Source: Candidatus Saccharimonadota bacterium (GTDB taxonomy: Bacteria > Patescibacteriota > Saccharimonadia > Saccharimonadales > JAGQNK01). From it: a DNA stretch of 39,703 nt. The notes under the pieces are model-generated. The model was given only the letters and a program-made list of their open reading frames with translations. It was not told the origin of the DNA and did no database searches. This document shows, in pieces, positions 16,913 through 22,612 of this stretch; positions within the stretch are counted from its first letter, which is position 1, and the number at the start of each line of letters is the position of its first letter. Position numbers and translations under genes: made by a program. Where the stretch lies: positions 1 to 39,703 of the forward strand of contig JAGQNK010000022.1 of the NCBI GenBank assembly GCA_020428105.1. Direction: 5' to 3'.

Positions 16913-17626
16913 GTGGGGGTATACAGCAACATTCAGATATTAAAAGCGTTAGAAGAAGGCCATATTATTTGTACGCCCTTCAACTCAAAGCACGTCGCTC
17001 ATGCCAGTCTAGACGTCACGTTGGGCTACTATTACTACAGGACCGGACAAGCTAGTCGTGGATTTGTGTACAACCCATTCGATGAAAATGATGTTAAGCG
17101 CTATTTTGGAGATACCCATCAAGCTGTACCACACCAAGATTGGTGCAACGCTAACAACGTTAAACTACTGGAAAACATCCCTCTTGACCATCCAGTCATT
17201 CCTCTTCGACCTGGCGAGCGCATCCTAGCTCATACTCATGAATTTTTTGGTATCAAACCTCCTGGAGCTTATCAGGTCAAAGCACGCTCATCATGGGGAC
17301 GCAATGGCGTTTCAGTGTGTTTTGATGCAGGATGGGTTGACCCCGGATATATAAATCGACTTACGCTAGAAATCTACAACCTAAATGAACATGAAACGGT
17401 CTTGCTACCAGTTGGCGAACGAATAGCCCAAGCAGTATTTTTGGAAACTGGACCAGTAGAAGGCAGCTATGGTGAAGGCCGCGACAATGGCTTTAGTGGC
17501 AAATACCAGCAAGGGACAGACCTCGACTCAATTATTGCAACCTGGCGCCCGGAGATGATGCTTCCCAGGGCATACAAGGACAAACGCACACTCCCCGAGG
17601 AGATTAAAGGTTTAAAAGCACGATGA
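16913..17626 (+). CDS. dcd: dCTP deaminase-like protein
   Basis: A 237-residue member of the dCTP deaminase/dUTPase fold. The conserved core reads YQVKARSSWGRNGVSV...DAGWVDPGYINRLTLEIYN; the RSS motif, the aromatic/Asp loop and the catalytic Glu in LEIYN (E153) match Dcd. It converts dCTP to dUTP (or to dUMP if bifunctional), feeding dTMP synthesis. There is an extra segment around residues 50-90 compared with compact Dcd. The start is GTG, set by an unusually complete AGGAGGTGAT. The stop overlaps the next ATG (ATGA), coupling it to the Tmk-ThyX fusion, which supports the pathway assignment. Confidence 0.88.
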   Translation: MGVYSNIQILKALEEGHIICTPFNSKHVAHASLDVTLGYYYYRTGQASRGFVYNPFDENDVKRYFGDTHQAVPHQDWCNANNVKLLENIPLDHPVIPLRPGERILAHTHEFFGIKPPGAYQVKARSSWGRNGVSVCFDAGWVDPGYINRLTLEIYNLNEHETVLLPVGERIAQAVFLETGPVEGSYGEGRDNGFSGKYQQGTDLDSIIATWRPEMMLPRAYKDKRTLPEEIKGLKAR

Positions 17627-19986
17627 TCGGGCGTAGTAAAACCCAACAAGGCGCCTTTATAGTTATAGAAGGGACTGACGGCTCCGGCAAAGGCACCCAA
17701 TTCAAACGACTCATATCTAGACTAGAAGAACAAGGTTACGATGTAGCCACCTTTGACTTTCCGCAATACGAACAACCGTCAAGTCATTTTGTGCGTCAGT
17801 ATTTAAATGGACAGTACGGCACCGCAGACGAAGTCGGACCGTATACTGGCTCATTATTCTATGCTTTAGATCGTTACGAAGTAGCTCCAAAGATTAAGCA
17901 AGCCCTAGCAGAAGGAAAAGTCGTATTGGCAAATCGTTTCACTGGTTCGAACATGGCTCATCAGGGAACGAAATTTACCAATGCAGAGCAACGTCGTGGT
18001 TATTTTATCTGGCTCGATAATCTTGAGTTCCAGATGTTAGGCATACCCAGGCCCGACAAAAGTATTGTACTGCGCGTGCCAGCAGATATTGCCCAGAATC
18101 TAGTCGATCAAAAAGAAGCAAGGTCATACACCGACAAAAAGCGTGACATCCATGAAGCAGATCTAAACCATCTACAGCGTTCAGTAGAAGTGTACGATGA
18201 TCTGTGTCAGCTGTTCCCGAAAGATTTTACAAGAATCGACTGTGTTCGCAACCGTACACTTATGAGCATTGAACAGATAGAAGAACAGCTTTGGCAAACC
18301 ATTCAACCTCTCTTGCCAAAGCCATCGAAGAATCCAAGACGAGTCGTAAAACAGGAGATTGCCATGTCTAAAGTTAACGAAAACCCATATATCACCAAGA
18401 CAGACTCTGGCTGGAAGATTACAAAGGCAGGCAAAACGTTCTTGGAAGATGCCGTTACTGAAAGCGAAGGTAATGTGTACGCATTCTCAGACAAACTAAA
18501 TACGTTGACAATTGCCGCAGCAATGGCTCGCCTTTCGAGGCGCGGTGACGATATGCGCATTACGATCCTTGATGAATTTGCCAGTGCTGTCGGCAAGGAT
18601 GACGCCCTCCTCAAACGTGTCATCACAGCATTTGGCGATGATTCAGTACAACAGCTGGTCGGACAACATATAGTGGTAGAAAATGCGTCGAATCTGCTAA
18701 CTAAACAGTTGGAGTGGGGGAGGCTAGCGGCCTACCTAGAGCAATCGACACGCTATATCTACTTCGATCAAAAAGATAGCAAGGGCAATTTCAAATACTA
18801 CACACCAGAACACCTAGATGAGCTTACGACGCTCAAATACAACACGGCTATGGACAGTATCTTTGAGGCATATTCTACTATGGTCCACAATTTGACTGAT
18901 TATCTGCAAATCAATTCATCTACACCAAAAGACGAGCAAGACGGGGCATGGCGAAGCGCAATACGAGCCCAAGCATGTGACGCAATCCGTCCAGTCTTAC
19001 CAGTAGCAACCAAATCCACAGTCGGGATTTTTGCAAGTGGACAAGCACTAGAAGCCCTCATTATGCGATTGCGCGCGAGCGAAAGTAGGGAAGCTCAGCA
19101 AACGGGTGACGCAATTCTTGCCGAGGCACGAAAAGTAATACCAACGTTCCTGGAAAGAGCCGACAAACCTGACCGGGGTGGCGCTACAACAGCCTATATG
19201 GCAACCACAAAACAACAGGTTAGCGAACTTTCTCATAAATACTTGCCCAATACATACAGCGTTTCGCAGCAGCCCGTTTCGCTAAGGCAAGTATGGCCGC
19301 GTAACGAGTTAGATCTCGTGCCACATATGCTATATGAGTTTAGTAGCCTATCTCTGGAAGAAATTCAGACAATTGTCGCAAATTGGCCAATAGATAAAAA
19401 AATCGAAGTTTTCGATGCCTACATGGGTGAAAGGCTCAACCGCAGGCACCGTCCAGGACGAGCGCTGGAGCAAGCTCACTATACTTGGGACTTGGTGTGT
19501 GACTATGGCATATTCCGTGACTTACAGCGACATAGAATGGTCGATGACCTACAATGGCAACAATTAACACCTCGTTATGGATATGAGGTACCTAGGCTTG
19601 TCGAAGAAGCTGGCCTATCTGAACTGTTCGAAAAATGTTTCGACCTATCGGCTCAATTATACTCTGTATTACAAGAGGCAGGCTATGGATATGAATCACA
19701 ATACGCAACATTACTAGGACACCGCATGCGCTGGAAAGTTACCTATAACGCGCGTGAGGCATTTCACTTCCATGAACTCCGCACTAGTCCGCAAGGCCAC
19801 CCCGGCTATCGTAAGTTGGTAATGCAGATGCATGAAAAATTAGCAGAGGTTCATCCAATGCTTGCGGCTCACATGCGATTTGTGAACCAAGACGAGGACC
19901 CAGAACTCACTCGTCTTGCGGCCGAGCGAGCAACTCAATTCAAGCTTGAACATTTGGATCATCAAGAATCGTTACCAAAAAAATAA
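17623..19986 (+). CDS. Thymidylate kinase fused to a tandem ThyX-like thymidylate synthase
   Basis: A 787-residue ORF with no internal stop. Residues 1-247 are a dTMP kinase-type P-loop domain (IEGTDGSGKGTQ, ALDRYE, NRFTGSN). From about residue 248 two ThyX-fold units follow. The first (about 285-520) has AYLEQSTRY, resembling the second half of the ThyX motif, but EWGR instead of RHR. The second (about 600-770) has an intact QRHR followed by QQLTPRYG, and NAREAFHFHELR. Together they would make dTMP from dUMP with flavin and then dTDP. An in-frame ATG at 18364 (M248) has AGGAG 6 nt upstream, so a separate 540-aa ThyX could also be made. It is coupled to dcd by an ATGA overlap. Confidence 0.9.
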   Translation: MIGRSKTQQGAFIVIEGTDGSGKGTQFKRLISRLEEQGYDVATFDFPQYEQPSSHFVRQYLNGQYGTADEVGPYTGSLFYALDRYEVAPKIKQALAEGKVVLANRFTGSNMAHQGTKFTNAEQRRGYFIWLDNLEFQMLGIPRPDKSIVLRVPADIAQNLVDQKEARSYTDKKRDIHEADLNHLQRSVEVYDDLCQLFPKDFTRIDCVRNRTLMSIEQIEEQLWQTIQPLLPKPSKNPRRVVKQEIAMSKVNENPYITKTDSGWKITKAGKTFLEDAVTESEGNVYAFSDKLNTLTIAAAMARLSRRGDDMRITILDEFASAVGKDDALLKRVITAFGDDSVQQLVGQHIVVENASNLLTKQLEWGRLAAYLEQSTRYIYFDQKDSKGNFKYYTPEHLDELTTLKYNTAMDSIFEAYSTMVHNLTDYLQINSSTPKDEQDGAWRSAIRAQACDAIRPVLPVATKSTVGIFASGQALEALIMRLRASESREAQQTGDAILAEARKVIPTFLERADKPDRGGATTAYMATTKQQVSELSHKYLPNTYSVSQQPVSLRQVWPRNELDLVPHMLYEFSSLSLEEIQTIVANWPIDKKIEVFDAYMGERLNRRHRPGRALEQAHYTWDLVCDYGIFRDLQRHRMVDDLQWQQLTPRYGYEVPRLVEEAGLSELFEKCFDLSAQLYSVLQEAGYGYESQYATLLGHRMRWKVTYNAREAFHFHELRTSPQGHPGYRKLVMQMHEKLAEVHPMLAAHMRFVNQDEDPELTRLAAERATQFKLEHLDHQESLPKK
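18353..18366 (+). promoter_or_regulatory. Internal ribosome binding site and start inside the Tmk-ThyX fusion
   Basis: AGGAG at 18353-18357 lies 6 nt before an in-frame ATG at 18364, exactly at the junction between the kinase and ThyX parts (MSKVNENPYI). The spacing is optimal for initiation. Confidence 0.55.
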
Positions 19987-20412: not shown

Positions 20413-20461
20413 GGCATCTTTTGAAACCGCTTGTAACTAAAAACGATCCCGACTCCTTATT

Positions 20462-20490
20462 AAAAAACCAGATTCCTTGCTGGAATCCGG
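20462..20490 (-). terminator. Intrinsic terminator inside the leader of the 133-aa gene
   Basis: On the minus strand CCGGATTCC (20490-20482) pairs with GGAATCTGG (20476-20468), 9 bp with one G-U pair and a 5-nt loop, followed by six T (20467-20462). The gene start lies about 50 nt further on, so this terminator sits between promoter and gene: an attenuator position. Confidence 0.75.
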
Positions 20491-20530
20491 TCTGTTACAT
20501 TTTTCGCGTGTTGTAAGCGACAGATTCCAG
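20480..20530 (-). promoter_or_regulatory. Competing (antiterminator-like) hairpin in the same leader
   Basis: On the minus strand CTGGAATC (20530-20523) is a perfect complement of GATTCCAG (20487-20480), and inside it TTACA pairs with TGTAA. The 3' arm GATTCCAG is also the 5' arm of the terminator, so the two structures exclude each other. Confidence 0.65.
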
Positions 20531-20575
20531 GTTATTGAGCCATAATGAGCACAAAACCGTAGCTTCGGCACACAT
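20495..20575 (-). CDS. Possible leader peptide, 26 aa
   Basis: An ATG at 20575 opens a 26-codon ORF (MCAEATVLCSLWLNNLESVA...) that ends with TAA at 20495, inside the competing hairpin and just before the strand shared with the terminator. It holds four Leu, one Trp and two Cys within residues 2-16. Translating ribosomes would cover strand CTGGAATC and favour the terminator. No ribosome binding site is obvious, so translation is uncertain. Confidence 0.4.
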   Translation of the reverse strand: MCAEATVLCSLWLNNLESVAYNTRKM

Positions 20576-20615
20576 ACTTGGCTGAAATTTGAATCAAGTT
20601 TTTCACAACTATTTG

Positions 20616-20644
20616 AATGTATCGCTTTTATTTAACATTGTCAA
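20616..20644 (-). promoter_or_regulatory. Promoter for the leader of the 133-aa gene
   Basis: On the minus strand a consensus TTGACA (20644-20639), a 17-nt spacer and TACATT (20621-20616). Start expected near 20609. The -35 overlaps the opposite promoter's -35 within TTGTCAA. Confidence 0.65.
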
Positions 20645-20673: not shown

Positions 20674-20751
20674 ATGAGAACAAATCTGTTGAAGCAACTC
20701 CTCCTCAGCCTAAACGGGCTGTGCTTCAGCATGGTTGAAGCCTCGGAATAA
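20674..20751 (+). CDS. Leucine-rich leader peptide, 25 aa
   Basis: The peptide starts MRTNLLKQLLLSLNGLC and has 7 Leu in its first 16 residues, including three CTC codons in a row. It is too short to be a regular gene, has no ribosome binding site, and starts exactly at the predicted transcript start. Leu-codon runs before leucine biosynthesis genes are the known hallmark of ribosome-mediated attenuation. It ends 70 nt before the synthase ATG and its 3' half lies within the alternative hairpins. Confidence 0.65.
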   Translation: MRTNLLKQLLLSLNGLCFSMVEASE

Positions 20752-20801
20752 ATCCGCCAGCACAGCCCAGACACTAGGCTTCGCCACGAGGTCTGATTTT
20801 A
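20716..20801 (+). promoter_or_regulatory. Alternative hairpins between leader peptide and synthase gene
   Basis: GGGCTGTGCT (20716-20725) is perfectly complementary to AGCACAGCCC (20759-20768), 10 bp. It competes with GCTTCA/TGAAGC (20723-20728 with 20736-20741). Downstream, CAGAC (20768-20772) pairs with GTCTG (20791-20795) around GGC-TTC-GCC and is followed by ATTTTATATA, a weak terminator-like unit sharing its first base with the long stem. Confidence 0.5.
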
Positions 20802-20821
20802 TATATCAAGAAAGAAGCACT

Positions 20822-21991
20822 ATGTCAGAAGTTTATGTTGAAATATTCGACACCACTCTGCGGGATGGAGCTCAGTCTTTACCGCAAAACAATCAATTCC
20901 CTACAGGATCAAAGCCAGAGATTGCAAATATGATCGCCGAGTTGGGAGTTGGCGTCATCGAGGCCGGTTTTCCGGCTACGCCAGGTGACCAAGAGGAAGT
21001 CAGAGAAGTCGCCAAAAATATCGGCAATAATTTGTACGAAGTACAATCATGGACGAACTCAGAACACGATTCTCGAACTACTCGTTATAAACACCCCGTA
21101 ATTGCAGGTCTTTCACGCACAAAAGCCGAGGACATTGAAGCGGCATGGTCGGCAGTTCATGTCGCGCAAAGACCTAGAATCCATACTTTTATATCTACCG
21201 ATCCGGAGCATATGTCAGCAAAATTTCCCGACCAATCCCCAGAGCAGGTTTTGCGTCTTGGTGAACGATCAGTAAAGTTTGCCAAATCAATATCTTCAGA
21301 ACATAAGGACGCAACAGTAGAATTTTCTGCAGAAGCAGCTACTACCACCGACATCGACTATCTGGAAAGAGTGGTTAAGTCGGCAATCGATGCGGGAGCA
21401 GATATAATCAACCTGCCTGATACCGTCGGGCAAAGAAACCCCGTCTGGATGATGACGTTCTATCGCAGAGCCATTCGCTGGGCAAGAGAAACAAACCCCA
21501 ATATAATAGTATCTGCCCACAACCACAATGACTTAGGCGCTGCAGTGGTTAACAGCTACGCGCTTATCCAGGCAGCATCAATTGAAGCCGACCATTCTGA
21601 ACATGACGTCAAAGTACAAGTAGAATCAACAATTTGCGGATTAGGGGAAAGAGCAGGTAATGCCGATGTGTTTTCGGTTGTTGCACAGTTGTTTAAATTT
21701 GGAGACGAAGAACAATCACGCATAAGTTGGGAGTTTAACCCAGCGAGGTCAGTTGAGATAGCCCGCACAGTCATGGCTTTTGCTGGATTGGATGTACCGA
21801 GACAATGTCCAATTGTAGGCAAAGATACAAATGTACACAGATCAGGTATACACAGCGATGGCGTCATAAAAGGCGGATACCAGATATACACTCCTCACAA
21901 CCCGACATTCTGGGGTCACCCTACAGAAGCACGGCACGAGGAAGGAAGATACCAGGGTACAAATGGACGCCGATTCGTGGCGACAGCTTGA
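20822..21991 (+). CDS. leuA: 2-isopropylmalate synthase-like enzyme, catalytic domain only
   Basis: A 389-residue DRE-TIM enzyme. FDTTLRDGAQS (residues 9-19) is the substrate/metal motif; HNHND (H233 and H235) and the N-terminal Asp bind the divalent metal; GLGERAGNAD follows. These fit 2-isopropylmalate synthase (acetyl-CoA plus 2-oxoisovalerate), the first step of leucine synthesis. Citramalate- or homocitrate-type activity cannot be excluded from sequence. The roughly 120-residue C-terminal LeuA regulatory domain, which binds leucine in classical enzymes, is absent. No other leucine gene lies in the window. The start is ATG 20822; an in-frame TTG further upstream lies within the leader hairpins and is rejected. 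Leucine control is inferred from the leader peptide. Confidence 0.85.
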   Translation: MSEVYVEIFDTTLRDGAQSLPQNNQFPTGSKPEIANMIAELGVGVIEAGFPATPGDQEEVREVAKNIGNNLYEVQSWTNSEHDSRTTRYKHPVIAGLSRTKAEDIEAAWSAVHVAQRPRIHTFISTDPEHMSAKFPDQSPEQVLRLGERSVKFAKSISSEHKDATVEFSAEAATTTDIDYLERVVKSAIDAGADIINLPDTVGQRNPVWMMTFYRRAIRWARETNPNIIVSAHNHNDLGAAVVNSYALIQAASIEADHSEHDVKVQVESTICGLGERAGNADVFSVVAQLFKFGDEEQSRISWEFNPARSVEIARTVMAFAGLDVPRQCPIVGKDTNVHRSGIHSDGVIKGGYQIYTPHNPTFWGHPTEARHEEGRYQGTNGRRFVATA

Positions 21992-22128: not shown

Positions 22129-22139
22129 AGGAGATGATT

Positions 22140-22406
22140 ATGTCAACGAGTATAATAGAAAAAACGGAAAATTTGACCCAAACACGTTGTTTAAGCGCTG
22201 CACCCATGGTTACACATGTAAAAATTGGCGGAGTAGCCTGTGCGGTATGGGATCTTCCTAAGCTCCACGGCTTTACGTATGAAGAAAGAAAGCAAACCTT
22301 AGACCAAAATTCACAAATTTCAACACATTGTCGACTGGGAGGTGTTGCTATCTCGCTCGAGCAATTTGAAACAGACTATCCGCATATACAACTTGGCCAA
22401 GAATAA
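22140..22406 (+). CDS. Small protein of unknown function, 88 aa
   Basis: I do not recognise this protein (MSTSIIEKTENLTQTR...). It contains three Cys (TRCLSA, VACAVW, THCRLGG) and no membrane helix. An AGGAG 6 nt upstream sets the ATG at 22140 rather than the ATG at 22134. It lies between a strong terminator and the L10 leader, so its transcription probably starts in the short gap after the terminator, or by readthrough. The L10 leader begins right at its stop codon. Confidence 0.6.
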   Translation: MSTSIIEKTENLTQTRCLSAAPMVTHVKIGGVACAVWDLPKLHGFTYEERKQTLDQNSQISTHCRLGGVAISLEQFETDYPHIQLGQE

Positions 22407-22550
22407 TTGACTTTTGACGCCGTCACGGGTATCCTAGATAAGTTACCAAAGACAGCGACGGGGAAACCTTGATAAAGTCGCCTAGGTGCGAGTCAAATTT
22501 GTTTTTACGAGCACACTATTGACCTTTGATAACAAAGGTCAATTTTTATT
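22407..22550 (+). promoter_or_regulatory. L10 leader (r-protein autoregulatory RNA) with attenuator
   Basis: Nested stems precede rplJ: TTGACT/AGTCAA (22407-22412 with 22491-22496), CCTAG/CTAGG (22433-22437 with 22482-22486), and GCGAC/GTCGC (22455-22459 with 22477-22481) with an internal GATAAA loop that resembles the kink-turn bound by the L10(L12)4 complex. An 11-bp terminator hairpin (22518-22543) followed by TTTT comes next. This matches the known L10 leader arrangement, in which excess L10-L12 stops transcription. Confidence 0.7.
22518..22548 (+). terminator. Attenuator terminator of the L10 leader
   Basis: TTGACCTTTG and CAAAGGTCAA pair perfectly around ATAA, extended by one A-T pair, and are followed by TTTTATT. 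It lies 65 nt upstream of rplJ. Confidence 0.8.
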
Positions 22551-22612
22551 GGTAAAAGCCAGGACCGGGTCGATGTCTGGCTCATAGATACATAAACAAG
22601 GAAGAAGCACAT

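What the first reader, a model, noticed from the sequence alone, without database searches (positions are those of the whole stretch)
20460..20612. Leader RNA with a 26-codon ORF and mutually exclusive hairpins upstream of an unknown gene
On the minus strand, between a TTGACA/TACATT promoter and the 133-aa gene, three segments compete: CTGGAATC (20530-20523), GATTCCAG (20487-20480) and GGAATCTGG (20476-20468). Segment 2 pairs perfectly with 1, or with 3 to make a terminator followed by six T. A 26-codon ORF ends right before segment 2. That is the architecture of transcription attenuation, but the controlled gene is of unknown function and no known riboswitch or T-box consensus is recognisable. 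A 5' part (AGCCA...TGGCT enclosing GCCG/CGGT) could also be a ligand-binding fold.
Basis: partly seen in the sequence, partly recalled or inferred. Interest (0 to 1): 0.85.

Follow-up and report, generated by a model that had tools for sequence, protein, structure and literature searches.

The report
Leaderless attenuator guarding a changing gene
Upstream of an unknown gene in what looks like a Saccharibacterium (a tiny bacterium that lives on other bacteria) there is a genuine RNA switch in which a ribosome translating a 24-codon mini-gene decides whether transcription stops early; the switch is conserved across the order although the gene behind it changes beyond recognition.

Summary
The translated ORF is in another frame: GTG 20606 to TAA 20532, MKNLIQISAKYVCRSYGFVLIMAQ*. 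It starts 9 nt after the -10 box, so the mRNA is predicted to be leaderless. I found 27 such leaders in the order, nearly all at one locus, convergent to a tmk-thyX fusion gene. Helices 1:2, 2:3 and 3:4 each coevolve (swap test, p about 5e-5). A simple ribosome model gives the antiterminator in about 4% of states with a ribosome at the stop codon, and 60-80% with one stalled upstream. So this is a ribosome-mediated transcription attenuator. It has no Rfam match, and I found no paper on one in Saccharibacteria. The gene behind it falls into several unrelated small-protein groups; two genomes of one genus keep the leader (73% identity) but have unalignable cargo. The sensed signal is unresolved: 24 of 27 leaders carry a Cys codon, mostly at codon 12-15, and codons 3-6 before the stop are strongly hydrophobic, but no single-amino-acid run exists. 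A divergent Leu-codon attenuator for a leuA-like gene shares the -35 box.

The parts
20616..20644 (-). Promoter: -35 TTGACA (20644-20639), 17-nt spacer, -10 TACATT (20621-20616). The -35 overlaps the -35 TTGTCA (20638-20643) of the divergent plus-strand promoter
   Evidence: the overlapping -35 arrangement also in G001 and G027, start codons 65-68 bp apart
20532..20606 (-). Leader ORF, 24 codons plus TAA: GTG start, MKNLIQISAKYVCRSYGFVLIMAQ*; predicted leaderless (predicted transcription start about 20609)
   Evidence: Homologous peptides in G001, G027, G028, G049, G009 and others; -10 to start 6-9 nt in most members with a clear promoter; period-3 signal
20539..20598 (-). Segment 1 and inner protector hairpin: GATTC early in the leader ORF, then GCCA-AGTATG..GCCG..CGGT..TGTGCT..TGGC (20582-20539)
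   Evidence: 1:2 cognate swap p 5e-5; in this window's own leader 1:2 is weak (z -1.3)
20519..20530 (-). Segment 2 (CTGGAATCTGTC), 1 nt after the stop codon; covered by a ribosome sitting at the stop
20480..20492 (-). Segment 3 (GACCGGATTCCAG): pairs with segment 2 (antiterminator) or segment 4 (terminator)
20462..20490 (-). Intrinsic terminator 3:4: CCGGATTCC-AGCAA-GGAATCTGG-TTTTTT
   Evidence: -13.3 kcal/mol, z -4.5; only match to this terminator pattern in the genome
20011..20412 (-). Regulated cargo gene, 133 aa, no significant Pfam, NCBIfam, PDB or PADLOC match; distant relatives at the same locus in G020 and G078

Best explanation
A ribosome-mediated transcription attenuator whose leader peptide is read from a predicted leaderless mRNA. 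RNA polymerase starts at about 20609 and a ribosome loads on the 5'-terminal GTG. If it translates freely to the TAA, it covers segment 2, so segments 3 and 4 form the terminator and the 133-aa gene is off. If it slows or stalls several codons before the stop, segment 2 is free, pairs with segment 3, and transcription runs into the gene. The conserved 1:2 hairpin probably paces RNA polymerase and, in some members (such as G027 and G049, less clearly here), favours termination when nothing is translated. The gene is therefore induced by a translation-slowing signal, most likely shortage of an aminoacyl-tRNA read in the leader. Cysteinyl-tRNA at codon 13 is a candidate, unproven. Shown by sequence: ORF, helices, coevolution, locus conservation. 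Inferred: leaderless start, order of events, inducing signal.
For: 27 leaders. In a joint scan of 109 flanks with one set of thresholds, candidates were found in 23 genomes on this strand (four or five doubtful by eye), versus 6 hits in 545 shuffled flanks. Cognate segment pairing beats non-cognate for 2:3, 3:4 and 1:2 (each p 5e-5, also after thinning to 21); 2:3 was not part of the covariance model's structure. Reading frame: in the block of codons 3-6 before the stop, T at codon position 2 is 0.69 versus 0.19 and 0.39 at positions 1 and 3, and 0.29 at position 2 elsewhere. -10 to start codon 6-9 nt in most members with a clear promoter. Ribosome model: P(2:3) 0.04 at the stop versus 0.6-0.8 upstream, highest 10-12 codons before the stop, where the Cys codon usually lies. 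At the same locus other leaders carry codon runs that match their gene: Leu for leuA-like, Ile for threonine-dehydratase-like.
Against: No run of one control codon. Cys is absent in G033a, G029 and G043 (Ser or Phe at the aligned position), and Cys is not more frequent overall than in the other two frames. Without a ribosome many members, this one included, still favour 2:3, so the untranslated state may read through. No RNA-seq, no start-site mapping. Members were found with a model or scan that requires a terminator (and, in the scan, an antiterminator), so 3:4 and partly 2:3 are selected for. The 1:2 helix of the window's own leader is not significant alone. About 5 of 27 leaders have weak 2:3 in the fixed window used, partly because segment 2 overlaps the end of the ORF.
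Confidence: 0.85

Rival explanations
1. Same attenuator, but the signal is cysteine shortage: the single conserved TGC codon (codon 13, 10-13 codons before the stop) is the control codon, as in the leaderless poly-Cys attenuators of mycobacteria.
For: 24 of 27 leaders have a Cys; 17 of the first 25 have it in one 4-codon window (expected 3.7), in peptides that share little else; stall there gives the highest modelled antitermination.
Against: One codon, not a run; lost in three leaders; frames 1 and 2 contain as many Cys codons (0.054 and 0.049 per codon versus 0.038), so a TGC at the hairpin may be an RNA constraint; the codon is usually in a predicted stem; no Cys-related gene downstream.
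Confidence: 0.3
2. Same attenuator, but multivalent: Val/Leu/Ile (plus Met, Phe) codons 3-6 before the stop sense branched-chain or general hydrophobic amino acids, like the ilvGMEDA leader.
For: 69% I/L/V/M/F in that block versus about 29% elsewhere; neighbours at the locus are Leu and Ile attenuators of branched-chain amino acid genes.
Against: Phe and Met are as enriched as Ile, Leu and Val relative to codon number; stalls that close to the stop free segment 2 less; the block could serve the nascent peptide.
Confidence: 0.22
3. Same attenuator, but a general sensor of slow translation (any starvation, an antibiotic, or a nascent peptide that arrests with a ligand), like erm or ABC-F leaders.
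For: No codon run; hydrophobic C-terminal motif GFVLIMA; modelled antitermination is high for stalls at most codons.
Against: The cargo shows no resistance family; peptides diverge strongly outside one clade, which is unlike a specific arrest peptide.
Confidence: 0.3
4. A ligand-binding riboswitch or protein-binding leader; the ORF is incidental.
For: Inner hairpin well conserved in the closest clade; 2:3 and 3:4 are also the layout of riboswitch expression platforms.
Against: Period-3 signal, conserved start and stop; little sequence outside the helices is conserved across distant members; no Rfam match even at permissive thresholds.
Confidence: 0.07
5. A terminated small RNA or small protein gene, with the cargo read from another promoter.
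For: A strong terminator follows a complete small ORF; a TTGAGA-TATAAT box lies at 20390-20362, but inside the cargo ORF.
Against: 2:3 antiterminator is maintained by coevolution; in most loci the cargo start lies 3-30 nt after the U-tract with no room for a promoter.
Confidence: 0.06

Closest known systems
trp/his/leu-type ribosome-mediated transcription attenuators (enterobacteria)
   Same: Leader ORF ending next to segment 2; 1:2, 2:3 and 3:4 alternatives; intrinsic terminator before the gene
   Different: Predicted leaderless GTG start; no run of one control codon; controls an orphan gene; 1:2 hairpin variable in strength
Leaderless poly-Cys attenuators of mycobacteria (Canestrari 2020, cited in PMC9031893)
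   Same: Leaderless short ORF with Cys in the leader, attenuating the gene behind it
   Different: One Cys codon instead of a run; intrinsic terminator with conserved antiterminator; different phylum and cargo
LEU element of actinobacterial leuA (PMC1262725)
   Same: Leu-rich upstream ORF before leuA: relevant to the divergent plus-strand leader here, not to the finding itself
   Different: The actinobacterial element is a pseudoknot whose base stem pairs the Leu codons with the leuA Shine-Dalgarno box; here there is a terminator hairpin
Antibiotic-induced attenuators (ermK, msrD, bmrCD)
   Same: Ribosome position on a short ORF picks antiterminator or terminator
   Different: No resistance gene behind it; no drug-arrest motif tested

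Membership tests
Ribosome-mediated transcription attenuator (trp type) | Short translated leader ORF with stop codon next to segment 2 | tested here: met
   27 leaders, period-3 signal, stop within a few nt of segment 2 (overlapping it in a minority); translation itself not observed
Ribosome-mediated transcription attenuator (trp type) | Mutually exclusive antiterminator and intrinsic terminator | tested here: met
   both conserved by cognate pairing
Ribosome-mediated transcription attenuator (trp type) | Protector/pause hairpin 1:2 | tested here: met
   met for the family (p 5e-5); weak in the window's own leader (z -1.3)
Ribosome-mediated transcription attenuator (trp type) | Run of codons for the regulated amino acid | tested here: not met
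   no single-residue run; positional Cys and hydrophobic block only
Ribosome-mediated transcription attenuator (trp type) | Readthrough changes with charged-tRNA level | not testable with these tools
   Needs reporter assays
Leaderless poly-Cys attenuator (mycobacteria) | mRNA starts at the leader start codon | tested here: inconclusive
   -10 to start 6-9 nt in most members; no 5'-end data
Leaderless poly-Cys attenuator (mycobacteria) | Contiguous Cys codons | tested here: not met
   one Cys codon as a rule
Known riboswitch or T-box (Rfam 15) | Match to a covariance model | tested here: not met
   only L10_leader and tRNA elsewhere
Actinobacterial LEU element | Leu-codon run base-pairing with the leuA Shine-Dalgarno, pseudoknot | not tested
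   Concerns the divergent leader only; described from PMC1262725

The most novel reading that the evidence does not exclude
A conserved expression slot: across the order, one chromosomal position next to thyX keeps a leaderless leader-peptide attenuator while the small gene behind it is repeatedly replaced or evolves without recognisable limit, so that host-dependent bacteria switch on interchangeable, perhaps host- or phage-facing proteins when the supply of some amino acid runs short.
Probability: 0.25. Interest if true: 0.8.

Novelty: new variant of a known kind. Interest (0 to 1): 0.62.

Why it matters
How Saccharibacteria and other Patescibacteria regulate genes when nutrients from the host run short is almost unknown (PMC11665869). 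This gives a concrete, testable switch, predicts that they couple transcription and translation and use leaderless mRNAs, and offers a natural regulator for genetic tools. Leader peptides with matching codons at the same locus also offer a way to read which amino acids these auxotrophs monitor.

Tried and rejected
Riboswitch or T-box: no Rfam hit. Protein search for the cargo in GTDB genomes: no relative. Exact DNA pattern for the leader: only G001 and G027. Cargo function: no significant Pfam, NCBIfam, PHROGs, PADLOC or PDB match. AlphaFold: window protein unusable (pLDDT 46); G027 cargo a helical bundle (pLDDT 75) without any significant fold match. G106, G113, G015, G033b and G069 leaders left out of the main statistics as uncertain or differently built. 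CM hits L056, L062, L071, L072: no leader of this type recognised at the hit; L070 is a leucine leader. Full-length equilibrium folding with a ribosome gave inconsistent answers because it ignores the order of synthesis; replaced by folding before segment 4 exists. My same-strand 'control' scan was no control: it found the Leu and Ile/Val leaders.

Full report
What was checked. The terminator alone is -13.3 kcal/mol, with none of 200 shuffles as good.

Where it lies. It is G000:C46, 39703 bases of a 910-kb, 63-contig genome. The leader and its 133-aa gene lie on the minus strand, convergent to a tmk-thyX fusion gene (17623-19986) and divergent from a leuA-like HMGL gene (20735-21991).

The right ORF. 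DNA search found the same region in a genome of the same genus (G001, 73% identity, E 8.5e-12) and in another family (G027). The GTG is 9 nt from the -10 box, so the mRNA is predicted to be leaderless; 6-9 nt is the rule in members with a clear promoter.

The family. A covariance model from those three found more members in 387 genomes of the order. Reading the hits showed leader ORFs ending at segment 2, and then that the loci share the thyX neighbour. I therefore took the thyX flanks directly: 198 genomes, 124 with thyX, plus 38 more, and scanned 109 flanks for a promoter with a start codon just after the -10, a short ORF and a terminator with an antiterminator. One joint scan gave candidates in 23 genomes on this strand against 6 hits in 545 shuffled flanks; I judged four or five of those 23 doubtful by eye. 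With the model hits this makes 27 leaders. The scan did not use the residue content of the ORF.

Tests. Segment swap test: a leader's own segments pair better than segments of other leaders for 2:3 (-14.5 versus -9.6), 3:4 (-15.9 versus -9.7) and 1:2 (-11.9 versus -7.8 kcal/mol), each p about 5e-5 (the floor of 20,000 permutations), and likewise after thinning to 21. Related sequences are not independent and the scan required a terminator and an antiterminator, so the p-values for 2:3 and 3:4 are optimistic. With only three sequences, column covariation was not significant. Coding: in codons 3-6 before the stop, T is at codon position 2 in 69% of codons, versus 19% and 39% at positions 1 and 3 and 29% at position 2 elsewhere. 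Ribosome model: folding the RNA before segment 4 exists, with a ribosome footprint blocked, gives an antiterminator in 4% with the ribosome at the stop and 60-80% with it 3 or more codons upstream, highest (81%) 10-12 codons upstream. The footprint (24 nt 5' and 12 nt 3' of the end of the A-site codon) is my assumption.

What it senses. Two in-frame regularities were found after looking, so they are exploratory: one Cys codon in 24 of 27 leaders, mostly at codon 12-15, and the hydrophobic block. Cys is not enriched overall against the other two frames, is usually in a predicted stem, and is Ser or Phe in three leaders. I therefore name cysteine as a candidate and not a conclusion. At the same locus, leaders on the other strand do carry codon runs that fit their genes: Leu before leuA-like genes, and Ile/Val before two PALP (threonine-dehydratase-like) genes and a RidA gene. 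This supports the general mechanism in these bacteria.

The cargo. The genes behind the 27 leaders fall into several groups that share no detectable similarity: {G000, G020, G078}, {G001, G027, G028, G049, G060}, {G167, G176}, {G141, G163} and singletons. Within one genus, thyX (74%) and the leader pair (73%) align between G000 and G001, while the cargo between them does not. Replacement and very fast divergence are both possible. No database gives a function, and a usable model of the G027 cargo is a helical bundle with no significant structural match. In this window the gene's ATG lies 55 nt after the U-tract and the AAGGAG at about 20455 has no start codon at the usual distance, so its start is uncertain.

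Known or new. Rfam has no family for it, and seven searches of the open-access library found no report of leader-peptide attenuation in Saccharibacteria; most subscription papers and preprints were not searched. It works like a trp-type attenuator. It fails one classical feature (a codon run), so I call it a new variant of a known kind.

Noticed in passing
window 20674-20804 (+): Divergent leader peptide MRTNLLKQLLLSLNGLCFSMVEASE* with Leu codons, then a terminator, before the leuA-like HMGL gene; about ten further genomes have the same kind of leader (LLLLxLxGLCFSMVEA), apparently leaderless too. Not in Rfam.
   Followed up: partly
window 20638-20644: The two divergent promoters use the same 7 bp TTGTCAA as -35 box in opposite directions; same arrangement in G001 and G027, start codons 65-68 bp apart.
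   Followed up: partly
thyX flanks: L131 (G087), L141 (G049), L115 (G053), L086 (G167), L080 (G027): Ile/Val-rich leader peptides (MVKQSAIIEIIAPPKR, MTQQGIISIIIMPPQARR, MNKIVAIIDIIDPLTR, MYKKQILVKVVILNPN) with terminators before PALP (threonine-dehydratase-like), RidA or small orphan genes.
   Followed up: partly
L067 (G069:C19) 1480-1740: Another leader (MVKTTANYSKNLVSSSLLIIALE*) with a 10-bp terminator before a 72-aa protein of unknown type, with no thyX within the locus.
   Followed up: no
window 22428-22557 (+): Ribosomal protein L10 leader (Rfam RF00557, 48.3 bits) before the L10 gene; also present near the same locus in L055, L057 and L058.
   Followed up: no
window 22134-22406 (+): 90-aa ORF between the leuA-like gene and the L10 leader with no Pfam or NCBIfam match.
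   Followed up: no
window 20413-20455 (-): AAGGAG shortly after the U-tract has no ATG, GTG or TTG at the usual distance; the 133-aa gene's ATG is about 38 nt further on, so its start may be misread or decayed.
   Followed up: no
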